Shown here: positions 6,178 to 28,986 of the stretch, piece by piece
Numbering within the stretch: the first letter of the stretch is position 1
How the letters are laid out: each line of letters starts with the position of its first letter
Source of the DNA: Spirogloea muscicola
Taxonomy: Eukaryota > Streptophyta > Zygnematophyceae > Spirogloeales > Spirogloeaceae
Length of the DNA: 64,000 nt
Assembly: GCA_009602725.1 (NCBI GenBank)
Contig: WELB01000194.1
Span: 1 to 64,000, forward strand
Direction of reading: 5' to 3'
The notes under the pieces: generated by a model
Database searches by the model: none
The model's input: only the letters and a program-made list of their open reading frames with translations
Told to the model about the DNA's origin: nothing
Program-made: the position numbers and the translations under genes

Positions 6178-8933
6178 TCCACTGCGACCTTGTGCTGTGA
6201 CCGAGCAGGCGCTTCTCGTCCTCCTATCACTGGCCCCAAAATGCTGGCTGCTCGCTTGTTCACATAGAGGTGGCTTCATGACTTGATAAGGCTGGTGATT
6301 TATGTTGCCTGCCGTTCTTTCACTTTGAGAAGTGTTTTCACAGATCCTTAAATTTGTTCTCCCCTGATGTCAAAGACAGACCACGAATGTGGAAGTTGAC
6401 ACGTAACATAGCTGCTAATTCGCAGCTATGCAGCATCTACTTGCATCAGCTAATGATGTAGTCGGACTCCACAGCTCTGCTCTTGTTCTCCAGCTCTGCA
6501 TGGGGACCATTTCCATCTTCTTAAGTCGCTTTCATGATGCCTCTTCTCTCGTCTTCCATTTCCAACCCCAGGTTCGCCCATGTGCAGAGGCAGTGTAAAT
6601 TACATCTGTTTGTAGTCATTGTCTGACAACCGCACCATGTGTAAATGCAAATTCTTGTGAGCGTAGTCCTCTAGTACCTTTTGCAGACGACATTGATGAT
6701 GAGTGGCGTCTATACAAGAACACAAGAAATACAGCTCAGACAAAGTGTACAAGGGCTGGGGCAGCAAGGCGCCAGCAAGGACTATGAGCAGCCCAATACA
6801 TGTGGGCTGACGACCTGTCAGATGGGAAGCAGCCTTACGATAGGACATGCCAGTTGTCTAACCAGCTGCACAAGACCAAGACCGTCTCCACCACAGGCGC
6901 CCATGCCTTGGCTAATGGGTCCTGTACTGTGCAAGATGTCAATGACGGGAGAGGATATCCAAAGGTGCGACACCCGCCCAGTCTCTTGAATCAGTGGTCT
7001 GACTGCTGTTGACTAACTATGATCAGCTGGGTTCTGCTACAGTCACCGTCGCACCTGAATCTGAACTTGCAACCTGTACTTCGGTAGTTCATCAGTGTAG
7101 CGTGCAAAAGGTTCGAGCCTGGGCATGTTCCCCAGAGGATGCCCTATCTGCCCGGATCCTGGTGTCAACCTGTCATCGACCATGATATTGTCCACTAAGC
7201 GCTGTCTACTGGTTACCGCTGGGTCCACTACAATCCCGCGACAGACTAAAATGTCTCGTTGATGAACTACTGCAGGTGTGCACCTCTTGCTTCCAGAAAG
7301 TGACCGACCAGCATTGCTTGCAGCTCTACCAGGAAAACGCAGACCCTGCTCATATCTGCCAACAATATTGCAGCGGGCACACCGTAGTGGCATAAGTCAC
7401 CAACACTTTGCTGACCGTCCTCAATGAAATCACCATTTAGGCCCACCGACATCCACTAGGCGAGTGAAGTCGACTTGCACCTCAATTAGAACCGCTGCCA
7501 CACTTCCTCAACGAGTTGCTAGTCAACACAGGATGTAAACTCACGTGACTGTAAAAGCTCAGTCATGTGAGACATGTCAGAGATTAGAGGTACAGTTGAA
7601 AGGCAGATCAAGATGCCCAATGCATCACTTTCGTTAATCATGACATACACCTGCTTGGAAAGCAGCACAGTCTGATGGACCCATACCATACGCTTGTCAC
7701 AGCAAGCCAGATCTATGCGCATGAAGCTGTGCGCGTACATCTAAGATGGTGGCTGTGACTGGAGCAATGTCAAACCTCCTGTTGAGGTCCCCAAGCTTTC
7801 ATATCCTTTGAGCTTTGTGGCAGCGAGCGCTAGGGGAGGGGGGGACTGGATGTAGGGGCTCTGGGGGAGCTGGAGTTGGCCTGGTGAGTAGATACCCGTT
7901 GGCTGAAGCGCATACTGTGGTGGGCCTAAGGCTTGGGACTCCATCTGTTTGCCCTGTCTGTCAACGTACGGATGGGGAGCAGGCAGACCTAGGCTTGTTC
8001 CAGCTGATGAATACTCAGAAAGATGACTAGTGACTAACTTAGGCTGCTGGAAAGCGCCATCTGGAGTAGTATCTGCTGTTTCAGAGAGTGGAGGCTGATG
8101 ATGAGGGAGCTGCTGTGGCAGCTGCTGAGAGGAGGGAGGTGCAGGAAGGGCCAGTAAAGTTGGTGTTGCTAACGGATGTGGAGCAGAGGGGCCTCCTACA
8201 AGCCGGGGCGGAGCCTCTGTGATGGGAACCGCTTGATGGGTTGGTGGAGCAGACACTGCACCCAAGGTCTGGGCAGACTGGGGAGCTTGAGACAAAGGGT
8301 TTGGAGTATTGCTGGGAAGAGCCAGAAGGGGCGCTTTGGACGCTACTGCATTTGTTAGTGCAAGCGCCTGAGATGCAACTTCCCCAGGAGCAGCTGAGGA
8401 GGATGGAGGTGAGATGGCAATGCCAAGGGCAGCTCTGGTCTGCACCCCCAAAGCAACTCCTTCCTTGGGCTGAAGTGCTTGTATGGGTGCCAAAGGTGGC
8501 GTCCCTCCTGGCAGCTTTACAGCACGCTGCGCTCCAAAAGACGCCTGCTCGCGATTAAGTTTCCTATTCCATTGGTGCAGTATCCCTTTGAGGGTCGGCC
8601 TTCCATGTGCCTACAAGAATGTGTAAAGAGGTGAAGATTCACCATCAGGTTGTAGACATGCACATCAAGGCGTGCATTGTCTACAACCTCTGTGACTCCT
8701 AAAGTCAGCGATCTGAACACATTCGCGAGTCCTCTTGCCAAGACATGACAAGAATTGAACAAGGGGAGTAAGGAGGCATAGGAAACATCAAGAGCTGACG
8801 TATCAGAACCCCAGAATTCTGGCGTGTTCGTGTTAAGAGACAACATCTGTAGCAGCTCCAGGTGCTGTTCATAATTTATAGCAGGATGACCTTACTAAGA
8901 CATCTTCCTTCTTCTTGAATATCTTTGACTATT
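6178..8933. repeat. Duplicated block, copy 2
   Basis: Second copy of the block at 1-2756 (offset 6177). This copy is continuous on both sides, with branching-enzyme 3' sequence on the left and the rest of the TWD40-1-like gene on the right, so it shows the true local order. The window start falls inside copy 1, so a further copy of the branching-enzyme 3' end should lie just left of the window if copy 1 is an allelic contig. Confidence 0.9.
6280..7740. other. 3' flank of TWD40-1-like gene, unassigned
   Basis: I recognise no family here. On the minus strand two frames are open: one at 7393-7043 and one at 7452-7267 containing CGVPAAILLADMSRV. The second loosely recalls the C-terminal helical block of TWD40 proteins. 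The same frames are open in the duplicate (1216-866 and 1275-1090), but the copies are too similar for that to show selection. It could hold further 3' exons or 3' UTR of the TWD40-1-like gene. Confidence 0.4.
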
Positions 8934-11336
8934 CCAAGGGTTGCAATGCTTGCCTGTGCGTGAAGAGCAGCCTCAGGAAGCATATCAGTTTCCTGCCACG
9001 CCCTTTCTAGAAGGTTATCATCTCCCAGCAGAGCAGCTGCTAGAGCAGCCTCCCGACCTTGGCCAGCTGCCATCATGGCTTTGCACTGTACCTGCAACTT
9101 TGCCAGGCATACAAGAGGAGCAACTCAGAAGTAGAGCCCCTACGAGGGTAGCAAGACTGGCGGTGTGGCAGTAGATACCCTCTATGTTGGGGCCTCTAAG
9201 AGGACTTGGACAGACCCCTCAGGCAAAGCAACTTCGCAAATGTGACAACCTGCAGACGTGCATTGTCTCCATGAGTGGCAAGACGAAGCGCCAAGCCACG
9301 CTGCTCCTCTGATTCAAGTGCCCCCTCCACAGACCCCGCAACAGCAAGCTTCCGCAAAGCCTGAGCGGCGACCTCCGCATTGGCTGTGGCATCAGCTCTA
9401 TCCACTAGGTCCAAGAATTCGGTTGCAAACTTGGCTACCCCCGCCACAGCCTCCGCAGCACTGCACAAGAGGATGATAATGCGATTGACCACACAAGCCT
9501 CACTGCCAGCTTGCTGATCAGCTTCGAAAGCACAGCCTGCCTACTCGAGTCACAGCAACAGATTAGTGCACTGAGCAGGGAAATAATCTGTGCTACAGCA
9601 CATCAAGGACTAGCCATGTCTTGTGATGCCAAATGAGCTCCTCCGCAGAAGATGGTAGTTAGCAGCACTATAACCTGGCCTCATTGGCAACAAGAGCCAG
9701 TAGTCCATCGGCATCCTCGCCTCCTGCAGCAGCTGGGGCAGCTTTCACACCTCCCTCAGCCATGGCCACCAAGCACTGCAGTGCCCGGGGAAGGTCATTG
9801 CTCCTTATCGCAAGTTGGACCTCCAATCTCCTACTTAGACCTGGAAGGTGCAATGCCTCCTTGGCATGGCCCATGCCCACCAGAAATAGGGCAAGATCAT
9901 CATGGTGCTCCCTGCTGAGGCGGCTTGCCCACTTGACTGCTCCCACAGCATCGCCAAGGGCGCACAGGCAGCGACACCGTACGCCAGGGTGTGACAATGC
10001 TATGGCATGTGCAGTGAAGTAGCTGCAAAGAAGGCCGCCAGAAAGAGGTAAGAAACTTCAGCGTTTGACTCCACAGCCTCTTGAAAACAGCGAAGCTCAT
10101 TTCAACATTATTGTCATTGACAATACAATCTGAAAAGCGAGTGATGAAATTGGCTTTATAATTTCCAGTGCAAGCAGTCATGCACCGACATGCCACGTTT
10201 AAGTCTGCACAGTCAGGCTACATGGCACGGATAAGCAGGAAGAAATCTGCCTGGGCAAGCCAATGTCAAAGATGGGATAGTCAACCTGTCAACCAGCCAG
10301 AGGACGCCATCCCTGACCCCAACTACGATCAAAGGCCCCACCGGTCGCCGTTGCTCAAGGGGCAGTCTTGAGGCGGCCACCTGTATCCCGCCACCTGCTA
10401 CAGCCACCTCCCTCCTTGCTTCCATCAGCGACCTCTCCAAGAGAGCTCCTGCATCGAGAGGCTTGGGTATGTCTCCTTCATCTCCATCCTCCCTGTCGCT
10501 TTTCCGGCCTCCAGAGAGGGGAGGCACTGCAAGAGGCTGTTGGAAGGAGGCTAGGCGTACCACCTGCAATGAAGAACTTACAGACACAGTGAATGCGAAG
10601 AGAGGCCAGTCACACTTGATCAGGACGCTGTGCTGGGTAGGCTTGTCACTTGACACATTGTAGTCCTTGGAGTGGCAACGTACAGTGATACTCAGAAGCC
10701 TGGCAAATAAGCACGACTGTCATGACCCGAGATGGTGACATATTCACGTGTAAATGTGGTTGCTAAGATAAAGACGTCACAGACCTGCAGCATGGGTGGT
10801 CGGTACTGTGTGGCAACCACCAGTGGCCTTTGGCTGACGCGATCTAGAGGGATATCAAGGCTGAGAACGGCAAGCTCTCCTTGCTCAGTGATTAGCCTGG
10901 TCTCTGCGGCCTTGGCCAACTCCTCTTCCCTCTTTTGCATAGCTTCCACCTCCACCTTGCTCACACCTGCATCCACAAATATACACCTGCGGCCTTCCAC
11001 CAGTCAGGAAGCCCACTAAGAGATTGTTTTTCAATAAATGATTTTCTTACATTGAAAGGAAACATTTTATCACTTGCAAACTTACCGAAGAGATCGATTC
11101 CTGTAATAAGTGGTTTTCCATGCATACATCAAGGCTGGAAGACGAGTGCTGCGGAACTACACAACATACACGTCGCCTTATGCATAGGTCATCATGCAAA
11201 AGTAACTGACTTACTCTATTGTTGTGGGTGTTGCTAGGTATAGCTGGCGCCGATGCCAGGTGCCCCCTGTGGAGCCGCATATTGCTACATTGCCGAGAAC
11301 ACGGAACCGTGGTCTGAGAGCAATAATGACAATGTA
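7741..11336 (-). CDS. TWD40-1-like TPLATE/TSET complex subunit, 5'-truncated
   Basis: Large WD40/alpha-solenoid subunit of the TSET (TPLATE) adaptor complex, which acts at the plasma membrane in clathrin-mediated endocytosis. Exons: 11336-11215, 10986-10785, 10563-10286, 10022-9675, 9460-9250, 9091-8954 and 8610-7741, all in phase. Conserved blocks match plant TWD40-1 as I remember it: TWHRRQLYLATPTTIE, CIFVDAGVSK, PVGPLIVVGVRDGVLWL, HPGVRCRCLCALGDAV, WASRLSREHHDDLALF, ALHLPGLSRRLEVQLAI, KFATEFLDLVDRADAT and AALLGDDNLLERAWQ. The last exon is Pro/Ala/Gln-rich with a stop at 7741. The N-terminal WD40 propeller is missing: the first exon runs into the N at 11337, beyond which there is repeat sequence. 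The intron between 8954 and 8610 appears to begin with GC (CAG|gcaagc). The stop at 7741 may not be the true end, since further 3' exons are possible. Confidence 0.9.
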
Positions 11337-12480: not shown

Positions 12481-12855
12481 GGCGTGCGCTCTGCCAGATG
12501 CAATCGTTGCTGGGGCTGCGAAGCGCTCAACTGCCAGGCACGCTGCACTTGGCGTCAGCCACTGGCTAACCTGCGCTCTTTGGCAGCTGTGAGCTCACCG
12601 CTCCGGCCTCTTGGGCAACCGCTCTTACGAGGCGGCCAACACTGTCTTGGCTTCATCGACAACCATTGACCGGCTTCGTCTCATCATAATGGCCAGGTCC
12701 CTCGTCTCGCATCTCTTCCAGCAAGCATAACATATTTGTGCGCCACGGGCAGTCACGTCAGAGCTTGTGGTCTCCAAGGAAAATCTCTTCAGGCTGGTAG
12801 AATCTCAATCCCACAGCCTGCAGAGAGCGAAGGCACATATCCGTCTTAGATGTAC
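12481..12855. other. No recognised feature
   Basis: GC-rich sequence between the dispersed repeats and the last ZDP exon. I see no gene, RNA or clear repeat boundary. It may be the edge of the repeat cluster or ZDP 3' UTR. Confidence 0.4.
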
Positions 12856-15800
12856 CTACCACTGCATATTGATAACCTCTACTGGCATACTGATTTGCTG
12901 CAAAAGACAAATTCACAATGTGGCTGCCTCTTTAGTTATGATGTCGCCTAGCAAGCATCACCTAATCTGATAGTCGCCAACAACCTGTAGTACTTGCTGG
13001 CCTTCACAGTGAGACTATTAACAATGTCACCTAGAGTCCATAGCAGCGGCGAAAACGCTTACCTCAGCGAAGCCACGATCAGCTGCACTGTGATCACTTG
13101 CTCTGCCTGCCGCATCCCCAACATAAAAAGAACTGAAAGAGTAGCAACAAGAAGGTCAGAGATGCTTTGCATGACCTTGTAGCAAATTGTACTACTGTGT
13201 AAACAACAGCAGCAATTGGAATACCAAGTGTCAGAAGCCTCGTTCAATCTAACCCCATGTCTCAAGACAGGCTCCCAAAGAAGGCATTGAGTGTCTGCAA
13301 GGAGATGGCGTAGCCACCTCTCCAAGTCAATCTGGACACCTCCATTGAGGTGTCCCTGAAATATGTGCCACATGCCACTCCCGGGCTTTCTGGAAGGATC
13401 TCCCGTGTTACTCAGCCCACAAGCAACAAACATCTGTGGATAAGAAGCCACAGTGATTAAGACTCACAACACAGCAGGTATGTGTTCACACGGATGCCAA
13501 ATAGGCCTGCATGCTGTCAAGGCTACAGTGACTCTCGATATTGTTCATGTCTACACAATGTGCAGCATCGCCAGTGACTGCAGATGACTCCAGTGATTGC
13601 AGTTCAACAAAGTGACTCCCATACTATTTCCTGCATAGAATTCCAGCTTTTACATCTTTGCTGTTTCAATTGCATTGCAATGGACGATTTGTAACGTTCA
13701 GCACACCTGCTAAGAGAAGTGTACAAAGTATGTATGCTACTTTCATCAAAACAACTCAAAGCAGATCTGCGACGTGCCTGCATGGGCAGGCCAACTTTGC
13801 TGCAGAAGCCCTCCAGTCTTCCCAGCTTAGAATCAATGGCCTTTTGCCGACTTTTGGTCCATCTATCAATGTTTGACTCATTTGTGAATATCACCTGTTC
13901 AAGAACAGAGGAGGCTGCTGAATATCACCAGCAAGGGAGCATATCAGCTGCCTAAGGAGCAGTGATGTCTTGTACCAGAGTCCAGGCGCAGCGACTAGCA
14001 TGCATGAGCACTACTTGCAAGACAATGGAGCCAATGATCTCTAGATTTATGCACGCCTAAATTTATGCATGAAAGGTCCATACCAACTTGAAGCCAGTCT
14101 CAAAAAATGTCTTGAGCCGCCCTGGGATGGAGGGGTAAAGGAGAGCCCAGGCATCCGGACCGTGCCTGTATTCAACATCACTAACACTTGCGTTAGCAAG
14201 GCCTCAGCTGACCTTAATATCTTTGTGCCTCCCAAAGCCATGGTGACTTCACTGCGCCGCGGCCTTTTGACAATAAGTGCATGCTGCGACCAAGAGAACT
14301 GAATCTGAAGATGTGGAAGCATGCATGTCACACAAAAGAATGAGATCTAAATTGCTAGGTACAGGTCTAGCTTGTGAACTGCCTCTAGCACTTGCCGTTT
14401 CATAGAAGTCTGAGCAAGCGTGCCGTCAAAATCAAATGCTGCAATCTTAGACGATGGTATTCCTTCAGCCTGCCAAGCTGGTACAAAGTCCAGCAGATGA
14501 GACAATGAGGGTAGCTGGTTGTTGTCAGCATTGATGACCAGCTGCATGCATGCCATCAGTAAGTGACAAAAGCGTGCAATGAGCTACCAGATGGTGACCA
14601 AGCAGGTAGTGACCAAGCAAAGTATGTACCTCACTGAAGATGACGGTGTCAAATGACTTCCAACCTTTAGGTAAGTCCGCCCCCTGTGAAGCAATGAGCA
14701 CAGTGTCATGTCCAGGATCGATCTTAGCAATGTGAAGAGATCAGACTGAGGGTCATGCTGAGTCTACAAACTTGTGATGCCAAGGCCCCCTCTCTGACAT
14801 AATAAATGCACTTCTTCTGTAACATAGTCAGAGGAGGCTCACTATGAACCTTGTAGTAGCTTCTGAGTTGACTTTTTAAAAAATTTGCCAACTTCTTCTC
14901 CCATTTTCCAATGTCGTAAGTATCAGCCTGAAAATGAGGAGATGCCTAAAGCAGAAAGTACCACTATAATATCATTGCCCATGCTTTTCTGTTCTACGCA
15001 GTAAGCTCAGGACTGTAATCTGGCTGCACTCTCTCGTTTCATGACGAATTGAACACTCTTAACCTTCTCAAGTCAGCTACTCAAAATACTGTCAGTTACA
15101 GGTGAATAAACTGTCTCTAAGGTATGTTGCATTGGCCCAGCGCTTGTCACCTTGCCATCATCCTTTGACTCCCCATAGACAGGGAAAACTTCCTGTGACT
15201 CCTCACCCCCAGCGAAGCCTTCCACTTTCCTCCTCTTTGCTGAAGGTTCTAGCCCAGCCTTGCACCTTGCTGCTGCCAAGCCCAGCAACTGCGTCTTGTC
15301 GGGAGCCTGGGCATAGATGGGGCTGCGGATCAAAAATTGCCCCCAGATAGCCTCTTTCTTTCTAATCTACACAAGGACATCTCCAATTGCCTTGCTACCA
15401 GACTGCTAAGCGCATGCCATTATACTGCTTAGTGCAAGCTTATGCAATCCCGTTAGTTGAAGCCTGGATTTACCTTGAGGGCGTTGAATCCTGTAAGCTT
15501 CTCTACATCAGCCACAACATCACTGGTCCAACTTCGAAAATAGCAGGGAGGGTGGAACCTGCAAAACATAGAAGATCATCTGTTAACATTTGTACGGCAC
15601 CGCTGTGCTACACTGAAAATTGTTGCCTGCAGTGAGGGACTGAAAGATATTTGCTGCCCTGTCTCGGAATGCTTGGTCCTTAGTGATTGGACTGTGGCTA
15701 AGGCCAGGTCTTAAAGAGGAATGGGGAGCTGGATTCACCACTTCGTTGTGCTGAAACCTTCACCGCCCTTGCTTACACGGCCCAGTTGCAGGGCCCCTTT

Positions 15801-16534
15801 CAGCACCATGCCATTGCACTCCTGAAATATTCAACATAGCGAGCTGGCTCAGTGCACATATATCCACCATTTAGGATACTGATCGAGTCAGGAGAAGAGA
15901 TGAGCAGCTGTTATAGGCAGCAAGGATGGCTGTGCAAATGGAGCCGCTAGCCCCGTGCTTGTGCAAGGGATACAGTCTGCTGTTGTGGCCCGACACTTGC
16001 CCTTGCTCGCAGAACTCGCAGACCTGGTCTTGTGCAGGACCCTCTCCTTATTTGGATGACAAAGCAAAGGATCTCAAGGAGGAGTCCTGATGCCAGAATC
16101 ATGCAAGGCCGTCCTGAAAGCAGGTACTATTGGTTCCTATCGCAGGAGGACGGTAACGTCTGTGAAAGTGTGTGCCATCATTTGGCGGCAGCTGTATCTA
16201 TCAATCCCTGATGGCGAGCCTAGCATGTCCAGAACCGAGATAAAGGCTCAGGACTCGATCGCGCCTTGGAGACTCCAGCACAAGCTGCTCTTCTGAAGCT
16301 CTAACCAAGGCTCGTCAACGGCCACAGCTGGGGCCAAGAGCGCCGCCTTGGCGTCGAATGCTGCTGCTGGCCGCCAAGGAGAGCTCTAATGCCAAGCCTT
16401 TCTTGAACATGGAGGGTGACAAGCCCCCGACACCGCCATCGACGTTCAAAGACGACCGCGGCTCGGCCCTGCCTTTGCGGCGCTACCTTGCAAGCCCCCC
16501 GGGCGGACTTGGCGTACTCGGCCACGTCCCGCAT
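12856..16534 (-). CDS. ZDP-like polynucleotide 3'-phosphatase with PARP-type zinc finger
   Basis: Plant-type DNA 3'-phosphatase of single-strand-break repair and base excision: it removes 3' phosphates at damaged ends. Exons: 16534-16487 (start MRDVAEYAKS), 15821-15739, 15558-15474, a linker exon near 15345-15075 (limits unsure), 14683-14630, 14541-14396, 14165-14084, 13894-13778, 13433-13318, 13132-13063 and 12897-12856 (last one weak). The zinc finger is spliced from three exons: ACK then ECNGMVLKGALQLGRV then FHPPCYF. The linker holds a basic nuclear-signal-like AKRRKVEG. The HAD phosphatase motifs are AAFDFDGTLAQTS, VIFTNESNIDRW, MFVACGLSNTGDPSRKPG and SFYVGDAAGR. Two introns seem to start with GC: after 14396 (ACG|gcaagt) and after 13778 (CAG|gcacgt). 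Phase across both joins is right only with GC donors. No kinase domain is seen, as in plant ZDP. Confidence 0.92.
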
Positions 16535-16800
16535 CGCTGCCCTCGTCAAGGCTCCCGCCGTAGCCGCCGCCGCCGCCGTCGTGGCCGAGCGCACAGCGTC
16601 GGCTGGCTTTCACAGCCGCCGCTCAGCAGCCGCGTCCTCTCGTTGGCGGCGCGGCTTGGTTGCCGGAAATCGCGCCCGCAGAAGCTGGCGGCGGCGGCGG
16701 CGGCGGCGGCGGCGAACTTCGTCGTCAGCCAGACGCTTCCGCCTCCGTCTCCAGCCACCGGGCCACGAGTCTGCGGCTGCTGAGATCTAACGAGAGAAAG
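16535..16800. promoter_or_regulatory. GC-rich 5' region of ZDP-like gene with GCG repeat
   Basis: Just upstream of the ZDP first exon the GC content rises sharply and a (gcg)n run occurs at about 16688-16713. Similar CGG/GCC runs sit at the 5' ends of most genes in the window, so this is probably the promoter and 5' UTR. No TATA box or defined motif is visible. Confidence 0.4.
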
Positions 16801-18300
16801 GGCGCGCCCATTGAGCCGCTCTAACGAGCGGCTGTGAATGCCAACCAGGTGCATACGGAGGGTGTCGACACTGTCGAGGCGGAGCGACAAGCTTAGGTGA
16901 GCTGACCTTTTTGGCTAGAATTGGCCACCCTTTCAATGTCATGCGCACCGCGCGCCTTCTCTCTTTTGGCACTCATCTAGAGAATGTTCCCGTCCATGCA
17001 CTGCATTTGCTTGGCTTAGCCTCCCTTTCCCAGCCCCTACCTTCTATGGGCGAGCACTTCCTTCTTCGTTTCATGCTTCTTCGTTTGCGGCTATTATTAA
17101 GTCTGCAGCGCTCCCAGGCACTCGCCATTCACCACCGTGCTGGTCGTGCATTAGCCCAGGCTAGTGGCTTCCGTGGTGGTCGTTTGGCGCCTCAGTATAG
17201 CTTGCCAGATATGCATGTGCTCACTCGGGGATATTAGTGTCCTCCTTATCAGCTCATTACCAGCTCATTACCCAACAGGACATTCGTAAGGCTAGAATTG
17301 GCCTCCCTTTCAATTTCATGCGCACCGCGTGCCTTCTCTCTTCATGCGCAACTCGCATACGCTTCGACTAGCGTGGCACGCGGTGACTTGGAGGTTAAGC
17401 CCCTTTGAAGTCTGTTCATTCTTCATAATGGGCTGGCTGATCACAGCCATCGCCCTCTACCGGAAGAGTCGTTCTTCGTCAAGGCAGCATGACGAGCATC
17501 CCAATTACGGAGTCCGCCACATTGCACGCTCCTGTATACGGTAAGCGCCTCTCCATCTTGCTCCAGCCCGTTCAGGCATTTGCCTTGCATCTGCAGGCAG
17601 GCCACACCTTGGCTGCTGCTTCTGGGTTGCAGCTTGTACCTGCTGCCATCTCCAACTTGCGGCTATTGACTAGGTATTGAGCACCTCATTTGGGTAGCCA
17701 CTTGCACAGCTGCGTGACTTGTACCTGACCCTGTCGGACCTCGTCTAATCTTTCCTTGGGCTGGCTTATTCACCATTGTCATCGCCACCTTTGAAAGAGC
17801 TGCTCCTTCTCTATTGTACAGAGCTTCTAATCTTCATAGTGTGCTGTGCAATGGTCACGCAGACTTGCTTGCCGCGAGCAGTTTCTCACACCTGCTGCAA
17901 GAGGCAGCACTTCCTGCACATAGCGAATGGGTGAGCACTCTTTGCTCTCCCCGCTGGACCTTCTTTGATTTCATAACTCAACTGCAGCTGCCCGCACCCA
18001 CATGCAACACATGGACTGTAGTGTAGTTCTTTTTCGGCACCTCTTTCTTTGGCTTGGAATATTGTCCATTCTTTTTGGGCTGGCTTTGCCAGCCACTCTT
18101 CTCTATGGGCGAGCACTTCTCTCCACCTTTGCCAGTAGAGCTGAAGCTCAGCGGTTTCAACCCTCCTGCCATGATTGCCCCTTCTGGTGGCTGCTGCCTG
18201 CAGTGCCCATTGCGAAGGCCCATCCATACCTCAAGTGTAGTGCTTTCTCATCCATCCAACAACTCCACAGGGTAGATTAGTTGAGGAAGACTGTGGGTGC
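16801..18300. repeat. Cluster of dispersed repeat copies (unnamed family)
   Basis: At least three overlapping units. One near 16800-17235 contains gcggctgtgaatgcc and later ctatgggcgagcac, ending in a frame that reads HRAGRALAQASG then LTRGY. A second near 17280-17690 starts with ctagaattggcctccctttc and ends with a similar LTR-Y frame. A third near 17750-18190 contains gggctggctttgccagcc then ctatgggcgagcacttctc. The same words recur in both orientations at 11-12, 27, 31, 41 and 42 kb. No transposase or reverse transcriptase is visible, so this looks non-autonomous. Confidence 0.6.
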
Positions 18301-18593
18301 AAATGGCTTCATAGAAATCAAGCACTTTATGTTCCGGAGGCAGAATCTGCAGCCAGCACCTTGTATACAGAGGGCCGATGGTTTGCAATGTCAAGAATAA
18401 GGTCAAATCGTACAGTATGTATTGGAAGTGGCAAAATGCTAAATCTAAATTGCGAGGTCACTGCTTGGGAAGTAGTGGCTCTTGAAGTCCAACAGCTCTC
18501 CCTGGTTTGTTCGCCAGCTGCTTCTGCACCACGAGAAAGACGAAAGCGGGCCTTCAAGCCCTTGCACAAGCAGGTTATCTCAGCCTTTGATGC

Positions 18594-21500
18594 TTACTCA
18601 ACAACCAGATGGTGGTCTTCAAAGAAGCAATGGACAAGCTGCACATCTTGAAGTAATGTGAGGCTGGAGAAGCATACTCCGGGCCTGCTATCTTTGCCGC
18701 TCCGCTCCCTCCTCAGCTGGCCCCCTCCTGTGGCAACCTTGTCCTTGAGGGGGGCCTGCCGCGACGGCCCCCCTTGCAAGGCCCTGGGTAGCTTGGAAGA
18801 GGCTGCAACCCTAATCTTTTGGTGCACGTCAATGTACTCATCGGTTTCGTCCACAATCTCCTCCTGAGGATGCCATAGGAAATAGATCATGCTTTTGGAG
18901 AAATACATCATTAGCTTCTGACAGCCTAGACTCCATCTTCTTGAGTCCAGGACAGGTGCCTCATTGGTCAGTCTCCTTGTTAGCATAAGCTTTTTATGTC
19001 ATGTGGCAGCCTGAACAATGGAAGAGCCTCTCCCGTGTTGCAAGCGTACCTGCAGCAGCTCCTCAATGACGTCCTCAAGCGTGATGATTCCAATCACCTC
19101 CTCATTCTCCCTCTCCTCCATCCTCCAAGTCAGCCGCTCTGATTCCCGGCAGCTCTCCCCATTGGGCGGCTGTGAGCGGTCGTCGCCGATCTCTCTTCGC
19201 CCCGCATCAGAGCCTAAAGAGGACGTCCCATTTGGGTCGTCCTCACTGGGGTGATCCAGCCTGACATTGCGCGCACTGGAATTTAGCTCGTCGTTGCCAT
19301 TGGACCAGGCTTGTGGTTCGGTGCCTTCCCTCCTGCCCGCTGACAGCTCTCCTTTCTCAGCCAAGTCGCTGTCAAGCTCCGTCACCTTCTCGGCCCCCTC
19401 GTATGAGGCCCCTCTTGGTCGCTGGTCACTGCCCTCTGCAGCGCCGTTTCCCCCCCGCTCGACAGCGCTCATGGCTGCTACGTTGTCCTTGTGCGGGTCC
19501 TCCAGTGGCTGCCCCAGGTAATTGCCCTCCTTGAGCTTCCAGTTGCGGCCCTTCCCGCCCTTCACTACCGCTGCCATGTGAGAGCTCCCCTTCTGGAACT
19601 CGTTAAGCAGCGCATACAGAGGCATCTTCCCAGACACTCTGCAGCAAGTACGGGTCACATTCAAGCATCAGTCAATCACTTCAGTGATCAGCCCTCAGAG
19701 AGCATCCATCTTGTGAAATGATGGTACTCGATCCACGTGTAAGGCTCAACCTTATTGTCTTGAGGTATTGCTAATACAGCAGGCAGAGGCATCAGAGATT
19801 CTTCTTTGGAAGTTACAGTACTGGGTGTTATGTGACAAGGGTTGTCAGTAACAGCTCAAGAATCTGCTGTGCAGACATACCTGGGTATGCGCCGGATTGG
19901 GATCTCACTGAGAGCAGTCTCGTCCTCGGGCCTTACAGTGACTAGGCTCTTGACCTGCTTTTCTAGAAGGCCCGTCAGAAGGTGCTTGAACACTTAGAAG
20001 GTGGTTGAATACTCATTCTACTTCACTCCAGTAGAACATACTGATCAACTAGCTTAGACTAATCAGTGAGTCTCAGATCGTCAGACTCTTTGCTACACTC
20101 ATGTAAGCTGTCAGCGTCACTGCATGTGTAAAGACCTGCCCCAGCAGCACATCAACGTTCTGACAAGCTGCTCACATACTTATTTGCAAGGTCAAGGAGC
20201 GCTTACAAGGAGCAGGCCAATGATGTTCTTCAGACTGCCAGAGTGCACCGGGACCCGACTGTGACCTTTGGCGAGTATCTTATTCAGCATCTCCCTGCAC
20301 CTCAGATGGAAGTCCAAGTATGTTACCTCTTACTTGGGGGTTTGCCTAGATTGTCATCGATGGTGTCGTTGAGCGTAGAAGAAATGGTCAAAGCAACGCT
20401 TCAACTTTTGGCCGAGTCTATAAACAAAGATATTAAGGCGAACTCCTGTGCTTGTTATCCACGACTAAGCTTTAGAAAAGGGAGAGCGAGATAGAGAGAG
20501 CTTTTGGTACCAGTCCAACTTGGCATTGATGTCAAGTGAGAATGTGGACTCAATTGGCGTCATTGCCTCTTCTGCTGTCTGTGCAAATCAAGGTGCGGTG
20601 AAGGCGTCTTCTTGTGCAGGAACAAAGGTGCTATTGTCAAGCTGCTCAGGACAACAAAATGCTATGATAGCCCATATAGGAGCCAGGTACAGGAGCCAGC
20701 CCATTGACCAATCTCAAGCTGCTCTTGCACTGAGGCATCCAGTGCTTCTGTGCCTTGTATACGAGCAGCAACGATGATAAAAATATGACAAAGTGGCTCA
20801 CCAACAAAGGCAGTTGGCCCTGCTGACATTTTCACAGGAGCCTGACAGAACCCTGAGCTCTTCACCTTAATTGAATCCCAACCACCACATCTCAAAGCTA
20901 AAGCGTGGAAAAGCGCCCCAGTGTAGCACAGAGGCTGCTGGCAAGAAGCAAGCCTCTGCTTGTAGGTAGAGCACCTCACCTTCTCGGAGAGATCAAGGGC
21001 GCCGCTGATGATGGTCGTCTCATCATGCGACAATTCTCCACCGCGCCCCTCCTGCAGAAGAGAAAGGCCAACTGGCTTATAGGCTTGGCACTAATCTTAT
21101 GACCTGTCTTCTGAAGCGTGGCACCCTTGACGAGGAGCTAATGAATTCTAGGGACTGTTCATGTCACGAAAATGCACGTTCTTAATCACAGTGACCATAG
21201 AAACTGTAGTACACTTTGGCTCTTGGAAGACTGATAACTGCACTCTGCCTCTGCACTCTGCACTGGGTACATATACTCTCCATTAAGGATCTAACACACG
21301 TGCACGTGTCTGGTGGACGTGGTGACTCTAATTGCCTGGGTGCTGTGCCTGTTGAGCCTTCTTTGTGGCCTTTTTCTAGCAGTGCTCAGTCTAAGCCCAA
21401 AGCAATATCTATGCCCACATGATGCACCAAAGTGCAAGATTACCTCGAGGCCATGGATGGACACAAGAGCCTTGATCTGGGCGCGGCGGAAGAGGCCCTC

Positions 21501-22727
21501 GTCATGCCCCAGCATGGCGTCCAGCACCTGCCACGCTGGAGCCCAACAATGAGCAAACCATATAGAGCACCGTTGTGGCAAGACCCTTTGCACCTTCATG
21601 GACTGTCAGCTGTCTGAGCAGCTGTGATGCCAATCACCTTTCCCATGGGATAGGCGACCACCCAGCACACGAGCATGAGGCCGCGCACGAGCCAGATGAG
21701 GTTGGCACCGATAGCCAGGCCGTACTTGGAGCAGACTGCTTGGGGCACCACCTGCACCAGGGCAGGTCCTCAAGGTTGATGATTATTGACGACAATTATA
21801 GGCCAGGGTGAGCAAGAGCTGCATTATTCCTGTAAGCTCACAGCCCCGCAGCCCACACAGGGGCAGATAATTCCGGCAATTGCTCCTCACTGACTTCAAC
21901 GAGGTCCCTTTACTAACATCAGATTACCTTGACTCCATGGAGCATGCACAAGCCCTGCTCTACTGTCATGGTGGAAGGAGAGCAAGCTAGCAGAAGCACT
22001 GCTGCTTGCTGCTCTGTCTTCTCTCTGAGTACGGAGGTAGCTACAGAGGTTGTTACAACCTCACTCCTAAACCACTGGTTGACGCAATGTGGTGCAATGG
22101 CTACCTCGGCGCTCAGCTTAGTAGCTACATTGGTGCAGAAGGGTGACCAATGCGGGGCCAGTCAATTTGAGACGTGAGCTGCTGCAGCGCACCTCGCCAA
22201 AGAGGAGGACGAATGTGACGGAGAGGATGACGGCGAGGTAAGGGTTGAACATCTTGTCGAGGAAGATGGGCAGCGCCTCCATGGCCGCCGCATTGCACAG
22301 CAGCAGCGTGACCAGCAGCTGGTGCTGCTTGGTGACGACCGGCAGGATCGTGGCTGGCCGCCGCAAGAAGCCATAGTAATACACTACGACAGTGTCAGCT
22401 CAGCTCGACAAACGGAACCGGAGTGGCTACCTCCACGTCTGACAAGAGTCAGCTGGAACGGTCTAACAAGCGGAGAAGCCATGGCTGCGGTCACTTACTG
22501 GCCTGCTCCTGCTCGTCGGGGGAGCCGCTGCGCTGCAGCACCTCCAGGTCCACGAGGCCGAGGCTCATGAGGCCGAGCGTGAGGCCGGACATGAGGCCCG
22601 CGAAGACCACCAGCGCGCCGGAGACGGCGAAGTAGAGCCACCACGTCGGCGAGCCATACGGGACGTCCGAGGCGTGGCCTCCCAAGGCGGCCACCGCCGC
22701 CGTCGTCGCCGCCGCCGCGCCTTCCAT
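18594..22727 (-). CDS. CNNM-type DUF21/CBS-domain membrane protein
   Basis: Member of the CNNM/MAM3 family (DUF21 membrane domain plus CBS pair), implicated in Mg2+ and other divalent-cation transport. Exons: 22727-22499, 22383 (or 22353)-22193, 21751-21638, 21527-21444, 21051-20980, 20578-20511, 20300-20207, 19954-19881, 19638-19050 and 18863-18594, about 590 residues, all in phase and all GT-AG. The DUF21 segment includes GLMSGLTLGLMSLGLVDLEV, LLCNAAAMEALPIFLDKMF and VPQAVCSKYGLAIGANL. The CBS pair includes TAEEAMTPIESTFSLDI, AKGHSRVPVHSG, PIRRIPRVSGKMPLYALLNE, EVIGIITLEDVIEELLQ and EEIVDETDEYIDVHQ. Between LNEFQKGSSHMAAVV and IGIITLEDV lies a roughly 140-residue acidic, Ser/Gly-rich insert, typical of plant members though long. 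The start is the first Met before a short Ala-rich leader and lies 45 bases from the sequence gap. A longer C-terminus by further splicing is possible. Confidence 0.9.
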
Positions 22728-22772
22728 TGCGGCCCTGCGCCTTCAGCGCGCCGGGCGCCGCCGCGGCGCGCG

Positions 22773-23275: not shown

Positions 23276-25306
23276 GGTGGCGGCGGCGGCGGCGGCGCCT
23301 CGGGGGAAGCGGCCGCGGCCGCGCGACGCCGCGGCGGCCGCCGACGACGCCTTCACGCTGGACAACTACCACGCCAGCAAGCGGTACCTCACCGAGGTAC
23401 CGCTGAAACGGGGCCCCGCTCCGGCCACGCCGCCAACTACCACGCCGCTAACGGTACCGCCGTCGGTCTGGCCACCATTGCTGACGGTGGCTTTGTTGGT
23501 GGCGACCAAGCAGGTGATGGCGTCCAGCCTCAACGGCCTGCACATGGGCGAGCGCGCCGGCGGCGGCGGCGACGGCGGCAGCGGCGCCCTGCCGAGCCCC
23601 ACGGCGACCCCCTCCGCCACCGCCGCCGCCTCCGCCGACTCCCCCTCTGCGCCGACGCCCGCCGACAACGTCAGCGGCAGCGCCCGCTCAGCCTCGCCTT
23701 TTCCGAGCCTCGGGTCTGTGCTTACAATCCCAGTGCCTTCCTCCTCGCGTGGCCACACAGCATTATAGATGGTGGTTTTAGGTGCAACCTCGTTTGCCAG
23801 TAGTGGCTGGACGACCCATCTAAGCGAGATGGGTGCACCGGCAGCTCTTGCTCTGTGTCAAGGAAGACCGAGGTCCTTGCTCCTGCAGAATGCAATGCCT
23901 TGGTCTTACAAGGTGTGCTCGCGTGCTGGGCTTGGCCAGGGACGACCTGTCGACGCTCGACTCGACGATGTCCGACGACAGCGCCGACTCGGTGACGTGG
24001 AGAGCTTCACACCTGGATGCGACATCTCGAGCCCAGGGCGGCGGCGCGTCCTCCTCCACCGCTTTGCTCGCCGCTGTGAGCCCTTCCTCGTCGTCGCCGT
24101 TTGTCGGCCTTCACGGAAGCGGGGCCAGCACTATCTACGGCCCATACCGCAGTGGGGTGACAGTGCCACGGGCTATCCCATTTCGGCCGTTGCCGTACCT
24201 CGGCGACGTCGATGGTCGCCTGCCACCCTCGCCCAGCGATCCCAACCAGTCGGCAAATCTGCGGCGGGCTGCACTCCTGCGTTCGCTGCAAGTAAATCCC
24301 ATGTCTCTGCCAAGCTGCCAACCGGAGGATTCGTAGTGTCTGACAGCTCTTGGTTGGCACTCTTGGTTGGTTGGTTGCTTAGTATCCATCTGATAATACT
24401 GTCTGCTTGAGGAGACCTGATAAGCAATTGAGGATTCTGAAGATGATGCATGGCCGGCATGGCCTTCATGCTTGATGGCCACGAAAGCAAGCCCCACTGA
24501 TGTTGAGTTGTGGATGGCTGTGGCTGATGCAGATACGCACGCTGCCTAGATCGCCGGCGTCTGGCACGGGCATCGCAATCACCTCGCAGTCTGTGCCAGG
24601 CGTGACATATGCTGACTCGCTCGAGCGGCACTCGCCTCAGGAGCTGCCGCAGACCATGCATGCATTGCGCAGCATCAGCAGCGACAGCAGCAGAAGCGCT
24701 CATGGGTGCTCTGGGCCGCCGCTTCTGTTGTCCTTGGCTGTGCCTGCCGCATTCCGCTGCAGGCGTGCCACAAGCCCCTCACCTCCGCTGTCCAGCTCGG
24801 TGAGGCCGGACGCCAATTTGCTCGCCATGACGACGTCACCTCTGGAGGCTGGCGAGCGCTGCAGATCGTCGGAGGTGGCAGTTACGACGCCAGTTCTAGG
24901 TGGCAGCTTTTCTGGGCCAGAGATGTCACTGAGCCAGCCCAACGGGCTGTCGCAGTCTAGCACGGAGGAGTCAGCAAGCTGCACATCGCCTGCGCATGAC
25001 GAGGCCATGTCCAGTGGGGCCGGTGTGGGCAGCGCCAGTGCCAGCGTTGACGTAGGCTGGGGCTGGCGTGGCTTCCCATTGTACCTTGGCGGCCTGGCTA
25101 CTGGCCCACAGGTGCCGCCTGCGCCGCTGCCACGACCACTGCCACCGCTCCAGCTACTGCCTCCACCGCCACCTGCTACGGACCAAGACTTGCAGGCTGT
25201 GCCAGCTCGCAGGGACAAGCGTAGCTTGCAGAGAACCTCACTGGACCTTCTTGCTGAAAGATACGTGCAGGGCAACTCTGACCCACTATGCAGACCTCAG
25301 TTGTAG
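23276..25306 (+). CDS. Unknown Ser/Pro-rich protein with SKRYLTE-SSLNGL motif, 5'-truncated
   Basis: I do not recognise the family with certainty. Four phase-consistent exons: before 23276 to 23396, 23514-23713, 23940-24291 and 24533-25306. The visible N-terminus has a poly-Ala run, a basic patch GKRPRPRD and then NYHASKRYLTE, spliced to VMASSLNGLHMGE. This pair of motifs recalls short nuclear proteins of plants and animals that carry a KRYLSE-type element. Exon 3 is acidic (DDLSTLDSTMSDDSADS) and ends ALLRSLQ. Exon 4 is long, low in complexity, rich in Ser, Pro, Ala and Gly, and ends SLDLLAERYVQGNSD. No enzyme or membrane segment is seen. A role as a nuclear regulator is a guess from composition. 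It faces the CNNM-type gene head-to-head across the gap. Confidence 0.65.
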
Positions 25307-25584
25307 AAAATGTAAAATTATCACCTCAACCGGCAATCCATATCCAAGGCAAAGAGCCCTAGCTTAACGTCACTTTTGTTGTATCATTTTTACATTTGGC
25401 TACATGAGATGGTGCGGGCCTTGCACTTCTTGCAGCCATCACATACGTTGACAGACCGGACTCTCACTGTCGGAGAAGCTCCCTCATTGCAGACAATGCT
25501 CGCCCCACGAGCCGATGCAGCAGCCACTGAGCCACAATGGGCCAGTGGCGTTTCTGCTGCGCCTCTAGTGAATGATATTTAGAA
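25307..25584. other. Convergent intergenic stretch
   Basis: This stretch lies between the stop of the plus-strand unknown gene and the stop of BLOC1S1 on the minus strand. No feature is recognised. It probably holds the two 3' UTRs. Confidence 0.5.
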
Positions 25585-26761
25585 TTAGAACCTCAATGGT
25601 GAAACCCCTGGTGCTGCGGCAATGTGACCCAGCGCGGCTGTTACCACCCCCAGGTCATAGCTCATCACTTGGATCCAGTTCTCAAAGTCGCCAATCTCCT
25701 GAGCCAAGTGCGTTAAGGAAGGGGGTGATAAGTCGAGCATTCATGAACATGAGCATGACAACTGAAGCCTGCAGAATCTCTGGCCAATCCTGCTCACACA
25801 TAAGCTGCTGCTAGTAGGACGATGCTGGCTAGGCGTGCTTCCCAATCTGTGCACATGTTTTGCTTGAAGCCAAGAGCGATGCAGAGACTGGGAAGAACCA
25901 GAAGAGACGTCCTGACTCCTACTCAGTTTCACTCCTACCCAAACTTACTCTTACCTCCCTCAGAGCGCCATCACTGAATACACACTCCATTCCCTCCAGA
26001 GCTAAGGGAGGAGTTGGCTCGAGTCGGCTGGCTTGCCTTGAGGGCGCTGTCGAGCGCGTGGAAAGCGGAGAGCCAGGCTGCGGTCTGCCGCGCGTAACGC
26101 TGCACGGTCACACCGAGAGCACGGGCCTCCAGCTCAATGCGCTTCTCGTCCACAAAGACGTCCTGCACGCCGCTGTTTACGCCATTCACCAGCGAGTCGG
26201 CCACGACCGCAGCCGCCGCCAGCGCCTCCCGTCGTGCCAGCTCTGAACATTGGCGCAGCTGCCTGAGCGTGGATTGCTTCTACGAGCACTGTCACGGCGC
26301 TCCTGTGAGGAGCCTCCACGCCGCTACGGTGCTCGAAGGTCGGGCCTTCTCAACTTCGGCGCAGGTAATAGCTGTCAGCTACCAGTGCAGTGTAGTACAC
26401 CAGACCCAAATCCTTGATAGTAAGCCTGACTTCTTGAACCGGCGCGAAAGTCAGACCAGTAGTCACTCGAACTCGCCCACGTTCCAGAGACAGGGCTCGC
26501 AGCAGACGAGCCTCATCACCCAAGGCTGACAATGACGTACAGCGGGAGGAGGGCAGACAAGCGAGTGCCCTGCCCCATCTACTTTACCGCTCGTTCACCA
26601 TGCAGCGCAACGAGAGGAGGAAGCTGAGCTGAGCTGAAAGACGAGGGCAGCTACTCATGCTGGGCTGTGGAGTTTAGATGGCTTCGGCGGGGCGGCGAAC
26701 CGGTGGCCTCTTGCTGCTCGGCTTGCCGCCGAGCGTGCTCCGCGAGCAGGTCCGCGAACAT
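25585..26761 (-). CDS. BLOC-1 subunit 1 (BLOS1/GCN5L1) homologue
   Basis: Small coiled-coil subunit shared by BLOC-1 and BORC complexes, acting in endosome and lysosome/vacuole trafficking. Three exons: 26761-26701, 26242-26037 and 25698-25585, 381 bases in phase, 126 residues, which matches the family size. Exon 1 reads MFADLLAEHARRQAEQQEAT. Exon 2 contains ELARREALAAAAVVADSLV, then VFVDEKRIELEARALGV and WLSAFHALDSALK. Exon 3 reads EIGDFENWIQVMSYDLGVV. These follow the family pattern closely. The second intron begins with GC (AAG|gcaagc) and ends with AG at 25700-25699. No GT donor nearby keeps the conserved ALK-EIGD junction. The reading frame stays open upstream of the chosen Met through a CGG-repeat region, but I see no earlier ATG. 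Confidence 0.93.
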
Positions 26762-27327: not shown

Positions 27328-28986
27328 GCAAGGATATGATGCGCGGCGGCCAGTGGCCGCTCGCCAGGGGGGGTGCGGCCGGCGAGGCNTCGCGGAGGGC
27401 ACTCCGGGAGGCGGCGCTTGCTTCAAGTGCGGCCAGGATGGCCACTGGTCGCGGGACTGCACAGCCGGCCCGGCCGGGAGGCCCGGCGACGGCGGCGGCG
27501 GTGGGGACGGCGCGGGCAGCGGGCAGCCTGTGGCGGAGCGCGCCTGCCCGTGCGGCGCGGGGCCCTGCGGAGTCCTGACGGCGCGCACGCCACAGAATGA
27601 TGGCCGCATGTTCTACCGCTGCCCCCTTCCAAAGGCAAGCTAGTCATCACTTATATGGCCCAGCTGCTAATTAATGTCTCTGCTTGAGCACTTCCGCACA
27701 TGAGCGGATTGAGCTTTAGAAGTCATTGTAAGCAATAGACAGACTATTGCATTACTTGATAGTCAGTCAGGTCATTATATCATGTCACTTCAAGCAGAGC
27801 TCTATGAGGTAAGCCTTATAGCAGGAGGCATCACACTGCGTGGAAGTGACCTACTTGGCGACCTTCGGGTGCTCGTATGCTTTATCAAACACAGTTGACT
27901 TATTAAGTGAATAGTTGTATGACTGATTGAATGATTGATTGAGATAGTGATTGATTGATTGATCGATCGATTGACTGATGATTGATTGATTGATTGACTG
28001 ACTGACTGACTGATGCAGGATGGAGGCAGCTGCAACTTCTTCCAAAGGTGTGACGAGAGTACCAAGCCTCGTTCCCCCAATCAGTCCTGGCCCGAGACGG
28101 ACTTTGGGCCAGAGCCTGACATGATGTGTCCCTGTGGTGTGGGACTGTGCCTCGTGCGGACCTCGAGGACTGAGAAGAACCCTGGTCGGCGCTTTTACAA
28201 GTGTCCACAGGAAACGGTGAGCTCAGTCTGATTACCTGCACACAACACCTCTTTGTCCTTGTTGCATGACTTACGAGACGCGCAAAGCATCCTCCCATCT
28301 TTGAGATGTCCCTGCAGCAATCATGCTCCGTGGCGTTTGAGGGGCATTAGAAGATTGTGGAGGCACTTCACTGTGTGGCGCCATTGCTTCATCGTGCGGA
28401 GCACACGGCACCGGCACATTCGTTGTGCTTTGTGCTTGCTTTGCTTGCTGCTAATGCCAATCAGGTGTATCTTTGCCTGTCTTGGCTACAGGGTTGTGGT
28501 TTCTTCTTGTGGTGTGACGAGAAGGCCTCCTCTGGCGGCGGCAGCAGACCGGCAACTGCCGCATGGCCTATGAAGACAGGGACCAAGCGGACAAGTTGGG
28601 ACAGTGGGGTGGGTCCTATTGGCTCAGCAAAGGTCATTGCTGGTGCTGCAGATGGACGCAAGGCCCCGAGAGCCATGGGCGGAGGTGGGGCAGGACGAGG
28701 CGAATGCTTCAAGTGCGGGCAGCCTGGCCACTGGGCGTCAGATTGCACGGGGGCAATGTCAAACAGCTCCTTCAGTGGGGGCTTGTACGCAAGCCCTCCA
28801 CGAGGCAGAGGGGCAGGCATATCTGCAGGGTGGCATGGACGCAGCAAGGGGGGTGGAAGTGGTCAGTTGCCAAGCGTGACGTGCTTTAAGTGCAATGAGC
28901 CTGGCCATATATCACCTCAGTGCCCATATGCAATAGCTGGTGCTCGGGTTCAGAGAAGTTCAGCTGGAAGGAGCTTTGCTGGGTGA
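27200..28986 (+). CDS. CCHC zinc-knuckle / GRF zinc-finger protein
   Basis: Nucleic-acid-binding protein resembling plant proteins that combine CCHC knuckles with GRF fingers. The tail of DNA topoisomerase III-alpha has a similar arrangement. Exons: about 27200-27634, 28019-28216 and 28492-28986. Domains in order: CCHC (CFKCGQDGHWSRDC), GRF split by an intron (CPCGAGPCGVL, MFYRCPLPK, then CNFFQRCDE), a second GRF also split (CPCGVGLCLVRTSRTEKNPG, RFYKCPQET, then GCGFFLWCDE), CCHC (CFKCGQPGHWASDC) and CCHC (CFKCNEPGHISPQC). The stop is at 28984-28986. GRF fingers usually bind single-stranded DNA. The first visible intron starts with GC (AAG|gcaagc at 27635) and the phase is kept. The start is not defined: the first exon has no clear ATG and contains an N at 27389, so an N-terminal part may be missing. 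Confidence 0.85.
27389..27389. other. Single N inside an exon
   Basis: A lone N lies in a GC-rich Gly/Arg-coding stretch upstream of the first zinc knuckle. Unlike the other single Ns, the flanks here are compatible with one continuous exon, so it may be an unresolved base or a small join. Confidence 0.5.
27928..28014 (+). repeat. (TGAT)n / (GACT)n microsatellite in intron
   Basis: Tetranucleotide repeats of tgat, gatc and gact type fill the 3' part of the first visible intron of the GRF/zinc-knuckle gene and run up to its acceptor at 28018. Confidence 0.85.

What the first reader, a model, noticed from the sequence alone, without database searches (positions are those of the whole stretch)
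8611..28018. Unusually many GC-AG introns
Five introns in four genes appear to start with GC: TWD40-1 (donor at 8953, minus), ZDP (14395 and 13777, minus), BLOC1S1 (26036, minus) and the GRF/zinc-knuckle gene (27635, plus). In each case the GC donor joins two conserved motifs in phase (for example ALK to EIGD in BLOC1S1, KR to HGPDAW in ZDP). Four of the five donors fit G|gcaag. The fifth is CAG|gcacgt. About 60 introns were traced, so around 8% are GC-AG, against roughly 1% in most eukaryotes. This points to a relaxed or specialised 5' splice-site system in this lineage.
Basis: partly seen in the sequence, partly recalled or inferred. Interest (0 to 1): 0.75.

Follow-up and report, generated by a model that had tools for sequence, protein, structure and literature searches.

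The report
Five likely GC-AG introns, ordinary type
Four genes in this stretch of plant-like nuclear DNA contain five introns that very probably begin with GC instead of the usual GT; each looks like the well-known GC variety with strengthened neighbouring bases, and only their number is unusual.

Summary
All five donors lie at the stated coordinates and join their exons in phase to an AG acceptor. I traced 46 introns in 8 genes; 5 start GC and 41 start GT: 10.9%, 95% interval 3.6-23.6%. This exceeds the plant mean of 1.2% (P = 0.0002) and Chlamydomonas at 2.1% (P = 0.003), but not clearly Euglena at 5.4% of conventional introns (P = 0.10). Support is uneven: decisive for BLOC1S1, strong for ZDP 13777, moderate for TWD40-1, signal-based for GRF, about even for ZDP 14395.

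The GC donors are not relaxed: each matches 6 of the 7 other consensus positions, against a GT mean of 4.0; 1 of 38 GT donors reaches 6. A matrix trained on GT donors alone ranks 4 of the 5 GC donors above all 38. That fits ordinary U2-type GC-AG introns compensating for a U1 mismatch. A raised genome-wide rate is plausible but untested: the genome is not held, no RNA is available, and the window was chosen because of these introns.

The parts
8611..8953 (-). GC-AG intron (343 bases, phase 0) in the TWD40-1-like gene; donor CAG|GCAAGC, acceptor TTGTAG|G
   Evidence: TPR_COPA_B 19.0 bits with this join against 12.0 with the GT alternative AAG|GTCATC (both under the Pfam cut-off of 33). Donor outscores all 38 GT donors.
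14166..14395 (-). GC-AG intron (230 bases, phase 2) in the ZDP / PNK3P-type DNA 3'-phosphatase gene; donor ACG|GCAAGT, joins MKR to HGPDAW
   Evidence: PNK3P 139.9 bits against 136.7 for the GT alternative CCT|GTACCT. Weakest of the five: 3 of 38 GT donors score higher, posterior 0.52 at a 1.2% prior.
13434..13777 (-). GC-AG intron (344 bases, phase 0) in the ZDP / PNK3P gene; donor CAG|GCACGT, joins LPMQ to MFVACG
   Evidence: No gap at the join against PNKP 1yj5. PNK3P 139.9 bits against 134.0 and 129.6 for two GT alternatives.
25699..26036 (-). GC-AG intron (338 bases, phase 0) in the BLOC1S1 (GCN5L1) gene; donor AAG|GCAAGC, joins ALK to EIGD
   Evidence: Ungapped over the whole match to PDB 9tqb_G. 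GCN5L1 100.2 bits against 82.4 for the best GT alternative and 62.2 unspliced.
27635..28018 (+). GC-AG intron (384 bases, phase 0) in the GRF/zinc-knuckle gene; donor AAG|GCAAGC, joins CPLPK to DGGSCNFF
   Evidence: Protein score does not discriminate (55.7 vs 55.4 bits); splice signal does (7.3 vs -2.8 bits).
12758..15330 (-). ZDP / PNK3P gene, traced in two unconnected pieces: 7 introns, 2 of them GC-AG; the first piece (intron at 15150) was not searched against any family
   Evidence: PF08645 138.5 bits for the second piece
27413..28986 (+). GRF / zinc-knuckle gene, traced part; 1 GC-AG and 1 GT-AG intron
3078..5687 (+). Comparison: branching enzyme gene, 9 GT-AG introns, 0 GC-AG (span of the traced introns)
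   Evidence: PDB match E 2.8e-172
18864..22498 (-). Comparison: CNNM transporter gene, 9 GT-AG introns, 0 GC-AG (span of the traced introns)
   Evidence: CNNM4 match E 1.6e-50 covers introns 1-8
34634..37347 (+). Comparison: leucine-rich-repeat gene, 10 GT-AG introns, all phase 2, 0 GC-AG
59833..60998 (+). Comparison: GPATCH11-like gene (DUF4187), 3 GT-AG introns, 0 GC-AG

Best explanation
These are ordinary U2-type GC-AG introns in a plant-like nuclear genome. The C at +2 costs one base pair with the U1 snRNA 5' end. The site is kept usable because almost every other position that pairs with U1 (or later with U6 and U5) matches the consensus: G at -1, A at +3, usually A at +4, and G at +5. 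Shown here: the position, phase, AG acceptor and unusually strong flanking consensus. Inferred: that they are spliced in the cell, and that U1/U6 pairing is what compensates. Their share in this window is about 10%, which hints at a lineage with more GC donors than the usual 1-2%, but the sample is one selected window.
For: Positions and phases. Each GC donor matches 6 of 7 consensus positions other than +1 and +2, against a GT mean of 4.0 and 1 of 38 GT donors reaching 6 (Mann-Whitney P 0.00014). A matrix trained on GT donors only ranks 4 of 5 GC donors above all 38. Pfam and PDB support for the joins. No U12-like donor among the 43 introns. With splice and Pfam bits combined, about 4.4 of the 5 are expected to be true even at a 1.2% prior.
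Against: No RNA. One site (ZDP 14395) is a toss-up at a 1.2% prior, and from splice signal alone TWD40-1 is 0.37 and ZDP 14395 0.10. The family match behind TWD40-1 is below its curated cut-off. In the dinucleotide-blind join test, 2 of the 4 GC junctions tested (ZDP 14395 and GRF) were not the best-scoring GT/GC-AG join. GC introns are longer than GT ones (230-384 against a median of 198.5; P 0.008), which this explanation does not predict. Single positions +3A and +5G are not significant on their own (P 0.055 and 0.068).
Confidence: 0.85

Rival explanations
1. A lineage-wide shift: this genome uses GC donors in 5% or more of its introns because its spliceosome (for example U1C, PRP8 or U1/U6) tolerates +2C better or GT-to-GC mutation has accumulated, with compensation still needed at each site. 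(This adds to the best explanation rather than replacing it.)
For: 5 of 46 (95% interval 3.6-23.6%); P(>=5) is 0.00023 at 1.2% and 0.0026 at 2.1%. Rates above the usual are known: 446 of 13,950 (3.2%) in Phycomyces and 659 of 12,186 conventional introns (5.4%) in Euglena.
Against: Window selected for this feature. All five fall in 4 of 8 genes and none in the 31 introns of the other four. The interval reaches down to 3.6%.
Confidence: 0.45
2. Chance cluster of GC-AG introns in a genome with an ordinary rate of 1-3%, brought to attention by scanning many windows.
For: At the Chlamydomonas rate of 2.1%, five or more among 46 has P 0.0026 and four or more 0.015; a scan of some hundreds of windows would turn one up.
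Against: Needs luck at the 1-in-400 level or a very large scan; the number of windows scanned is not known to me.
Confidence: 0.45
3. Most of the five are mis-traced and use a nearby weak GT donor.
For: In-frame GT-AG alternatives exist for every site, best at ZDP 14395 (CCT|GTACCT, summed splice score 7.6 against 10.9) and TWD40-1 (AAG|GTCATC, 3.0 against 8.5). The GRF alternative 'PKASYCNFF' has a nearly equal Pfam score and scored 9 points higher than the traced join against NEIL3.
Against: Every GT alternative has a lower summed splice score, and each one given to Pfam a lower score, in GRF by only 0.3 bits; combined expectation 4.4-4.8 true of 5.
Confidence: 0.1
4. A relaxed 5' splice-site system like that of dinoflagellates or diplonemids, accepting many dinucleotides.
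For: GT donors here are fairly degenerate (+5G in 21 of 38, +3A in 20 of 38).
Against: The GC donors are the strongest, not the weakest. 46 of 46 introns start GT or GC and end AG, though tracing favoured such ends. Degenerate GT donors also occur in plants (recalled; a passage of PMC11170887 says +5G is not prominent in Arabidopsis).
Confidence: 0.04

Closest known systems
U2-type GC-AG introns of plants (PMC6310983, PMC7072748: passages read)
   Same: GC start, AG end, scattered among ordinary GT-AG introns. That GC sites carry strong flanks is recalled general knowledge, not taken from these passages.
   Different: Reported mean share in plants is about 1.2%; here 5 of 46 in one selected window.
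Mammalian GC-AG introns (PMC7242645 passages; PMC2490688 abstract and outline)
   Same: GC donor mismatched to U1 at +2; GC sites arise from GT sites.
   Different: There about 0.8% of coding-gene splice sites, shorter than GT introns and with weaker donor scores that include +2; here longer, and stronger once +2 is left out.
Euglena gracilis conventional GC-AG introns (PMC11170887 passages)
   Same: Share of several percent: 659 GC-AG to 11,527 GT-AG; +5G prominent in GC-AG.
   Different: Only +5G stands out there, whereas -1, +3 and +4 are strong here too. Euglena also has very many non-conventional introns; none were traced here, though tracing would not readily show them.
Chlamydomonas GC-AG introns (PMC2846911, passages and section 11 read)
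   Same: A green alga with U2-type GC-AG introns: 532 of 25,585 (2.1%).
   Different: Lower share; the species of this window is unknown.

Membership tests
U2-type GC-AG intron | Begins GC, ends AG, joins coding exons in phase | tested here: met
   5 of 5; protein support decisive for 1, strong for 1, moderate for 1, slight or neutral for 2
U2-type GC-AG intron | Compensating strong consensus at the other donor positions | tested here: met
   6 of 7 matches in each of 5 against a GT mean of 4.0; 4 of 5 above all 38 GT donors
U2-type GC-AG intron | Not a U12-type donor (RTATCC) | tested here: met
   No RTATCC start among the 43 introns
U2-type GC-AG intron | Spliced from mature mRNA at the GC site | not testable with these tools
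   No RNA data for this species
Lineage with raised GC-AG usage | Genome-wide GC-AG share well above 1-2% | not testable with these tools
   Genome not held; window sample 5 of 46, interval 3.6-23.6%
Relaxed 5' splice-site system (dinoflagellate or diplonemid style) | Non-GT donors without compensating consensus | tested here: not met
   GC donors are the most consensus-like
Relaxed 5' splice-site system (dinoflagellate or diplonemid style) | Other donor dinucleotides such as GA in use | tested here: inconclusive
   None among 46, but tracing favoured GT/GC-AG; in the blind test the traced join was the best GT/GC-AG join in 21 of 25 and tied for best of any in 12 of 25
U12-type GC-AG intron | U12 donor and branch site | tested here: not met
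   No U12 donor in any of 43; of the five GC introns only the BLOC1S1 one has a TCCTTRAY match, TTCCTTAAC near its AG

The most novel reading that the evidence does not exclude
A green-lineage alga in which GC donors make up 5-20% of all U2-type introns, each kept by near-perfect U1/U6 complementarity elsewhere, so that the spliceosome has in effect two donor classes: degenerate GT sites and strict GC sites.
Probability: 0.4. Interest if true: 0.5.

Novelty: new member of a known kind. Interest (0 to 1): 0.3.

Why it matters
GC donors are easily missed by gene finders (one such case in plants is described in a passage of PMC3161902), so a genome rich in them would have many broken gene models, including conserved genes such as BLOC1S1 and the DNA 3'-phosphatase seen here. 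A genome-wide raised share would also give a natural test of how much consensus is needed elsewhere to pay for a mismatch at +2. If the share is ordinary, the finding is only a local cluster of a well-known intron class.

Tried and rejected
Rfam on the window gave no hit at gathering thresholds, so no U1 gene was available. Guess of Mesostigma: its genome paper (PMC6947507, passages) reports a mean intron of 1,142 bases, unlike the median of about 200 here, and the find for 'splic' returned nothing; the species stays unknown. In viral contigs one stretch matched a pattern but none encodes a relative. Neither helped with introns.

Rejected: U12-type introns (no U12 donor among the 43 introns). 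The TTCCTTAAC in the BLOC1S1 intron was noticed after the fact and is treated as a curiosity. Sequence error turning GT into GC was not tested; it is thought unlikely because the five sites also carry the strongest flanks.

Gene searches that gave no intron data: Pfam on 15900-18600 both strands and 23601-25400 plus strand only, 29000-33980 (a weak pantothenate-kinase exon only), 38000-42900. One search scanned 18600-22740 minus, 33900-37900 plus and 59250-60700 plus, and one search scanned 59000-63990 both strands; the rest of the window, including the repeat-rich 43-59 kb, was not scanned frame by frame, and the genes there were found by reading. Introns left out before counting because their ends were ambiguous: the first intron(s) of the LRR gene, upstream introns of TWD40-1, ZDP and BLOC1S1, and the pantothenate-kinase piece.

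Literature: nine searches ran; two searches found no paper. None of the listings, abstract starts or passages I saw reports a green alga or streptophyte with a GC-AG share near 10%. The library is open-access only, and 11 papers were opened, most of them only by find-passages.
Full report
What was checked. The window is 64 kb with 508 N and carries plant-like nuclear genes. No whole genome is held for it and no file could be laid, so everything rests on the window itself, on protein families and on the literature. The species is not known; 'plant-like' rests on gene content that I partly recall (TWD40-1, ZDP, starch branching enzyme).

Tracing. I read the three frames of each gene and fixed 43 introns in 7 genes: branching enzyme 9, TWD40-1 5, ZDP 7, BLOC1S1 1, GRF/zinc-knuckle 2, CNNM 9, LRR 10. 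Three more come from a GPATCH11-like gene. All eight spliced pieces are open. Of the 46 junctions, 29 lie inside a Pfam or PDB match: branching enzyme 9, CNNM 8, ZDP 5, GRF 2, GPATCH11 2, BLOC1S1 1, and TWD40-1 2 in a match below its cut-off. The other 17 rest on reading frame and splice signal: LRR 10 (Pfam matches to single repeats, not mapped to junctions), TWD40-1 3, ZDP 2, CNNM 1, GPATCH11 1. Introns whose ends were ambiguous were left out. Result: 41 GT-AG and 5 GC-AG; all 5 GC sites are among the 29.

Are the five joins right? BLOC1S1: the spliced protein aligns without a gap across the join to PDB 9tqb_G, and GCN5L1 scores 100.2 bits against 82.4 for the best GT alternative and 62.2 unspliced. 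ZDP 13777: no gap at the join against PNKP; PNK3P 139.9 bits against 134.0 and 129.6 for two GT alternatives. TWD40-1 8953: TPR_COPA_B 19.0 bits against 12.0 for the GT alternative, both under the family cut-off of 33, so this is supporting rather than proving; two PDB matches with E 0.7 and 1.7 are not meaningful. ZDP 14395: 139.9 against 136.7 bits, a small margin. GRF 27635: 55.7 against 55.4 bits, no discrimination; the case rests on the splice signal.

Splice signal. A matrix trained only on the 38 GT donors, ignoring +2, gives the five GC donors 4.7-7.0 bits, against a leave-one-out GT median of 2.5 and maximum of 5.4; 4 of 5 exceed every GT donor, and 3 of 38 exceed the fifth (ZDP 14395). 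Among all 11,607 GC dinucleotides of both strands, the five lie in the best 0.01-0.61%. Within donor -36 to +129 and acceptor -75 to +39, each GC-AG join has the highest summed donor and acceptor score of all in-frame, stop-free GT-AG and GC-AG joins. The acceptor matrix was trained on all 43 acceptors, the GC ones included. Acceptors of GC introns are not stronger than usual: 0.9-6.6 against a median of 5.1. Matches to CAG|GTAAGT outside +1 and +2 (A also counted at -3) are 6 of 7 in all five GC donors, against a GT mean of 4.0 with 1 of 38 reaching 6 (P 0.00014). Single positions alone are not significant (+3A 5 of 5 against 20 of 38, P 0.055; +4A 4 of 5 against 18 of 38, P 0.19; +5G 5 of 5 against 21 of 38, P 0.068; +6T 2 of 5 against 15 of 38, P 0.67). 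GC introns are longer: 230-384 bases against a GT median of 198.5 (P 0.008, n = 5).

A blind check. For 25 of the 46 junctions, those with a PDB relative shown, I scored all joins within 21 bases of each end without regard to dinucleotides. The traced join was tied for best of any in 12 of 25, and was the best GT/GC-AG join in 21 of 25. The four exceptions were ZDP 14395, GRF 27635, and the fourth and eighth CNNM introns. For ZDP 14395 the best GT/GC-AG join kept the same GC donor with another acceptor; the animal reference is 3 residues longer there, and no GT-AG join fell in range. For GRF the best was another GC donor 4 bases on, with a GT join one point behind, while the traced join was 10 points lower; NEIL3 is one residue shorter there. 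These are results against a clean reading of those two sites. TWD40-1 had no PDB relative and was not in this test.

Combining bits. With a 1.2% prior for GC, the margins are: TWD40-1 +6.2 bits, ZDP 14395 +0.1, ZDP 13777 +10.9, BLOC1S1 +22.1, GRF +4.0, giving 4.4 true of 5 expected; at a 5% prior, 4.8. From the splice signal alone at 1.2%, TWD40-1 is 0.37 and ZDP 14395 is 0.10, so these two need the protein evidence. Each comparison is with one GT alternative only: the one of best splice score, except in GRF, where the one of best score (1.2) deletes the FYRCP motif and falls to 21.3 Pfam bits, so the next one was used.

Is the number unusual? 5 of 46 is 10.9% (3.6-23.6%). P(>=5) is 0.00023 at the plant mean of 1.2% (PMC6310983, passages), 0.0026 at 532 of 25,585 in Chlamydomonas and 0.015 at 446 of 13,950 in Phycomyces (PMC2846911, section 11), and 0.10 at 659 of 12,186 conventional introns in Euglena (PMC11170887, passages); all P values. 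With only 4 true the Chlamydomonas value is 0.015. These P values take no account of the window being chosen because of its GC introns. All five lie in 4 genes and none in the 31 introns of the other four; the probability of that split is 0.0022 but the split was made after seeing the data.

How it works. The most likely mechanism is the ordinary one: U2-type splicing in which the mismatch at +2 with U1 is paid for by good pairing at -1 and +3 to +5. The consensus pattern is shown; the pairing and the splicing are inferred. There is no sign of U12 splicing at the donors: none of the 43 introns starts RTATCC. The BLOC1S1 intron does carry TTCCTTAAC shortly before its AG, which resembles a U12 branch site, but its donor does not fit and I regard it as chance.

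Verdict. In detail: four sites range from moderate to decisive and one (ZDP 14395) is about even at a low prior. The class is well known. The claim of a relaxed 5' splice-site system is contradicted by the strictness of the GC donors; the claim of a raised GC-AG share in the lineage is open and cheap to test with the genome and RNA-seq.

Noticed in passing
1-2756 and 6178-8933: 99.2% identical direct copy (22 mismatches, no gaps) ending at the single N at 2757, beyond which a branching-enzyme gene is read: a scaffold join of two haplotypes or a tandem duplication. The copy holds most of the TWD40-1 GC intron but stops 20 bases before its donor.
   Followed up: partly
25699-25725 minus: The BLOC1S1 GC-AG intron carries TTCCTTAAC about 15 bases before its AG, like a U12 branch site, though its donor is not U12-like.
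   Followed up: partly
33000-33140 minus: A pantothenate-kinase-like first exon (RFGLDIGGTLCKLVYLEP; Fumble 12.4 bits, below the cut-off); I saw no further exons by eye or Pfam in 29000-33200: possibly interrupted or a fragment.
   Followed up: partly
43000-59000: Many pairs of long, diverged direct and inverted repeats (about 73-92% identity), with reading frames that look retroelement-like by eye; not scanned for families.
   Followed up: no
34634-37347: The LRR gene has 10 introns, all phase 2, 22-39 residues apart, close to an exon-per-repeat layout.
   Followed up: no
27920-28015: A run of TGAT/TGAC short repeats fills the 3' end of the GRF GC-AG intron right up to its acceptor.
   Followed up: no
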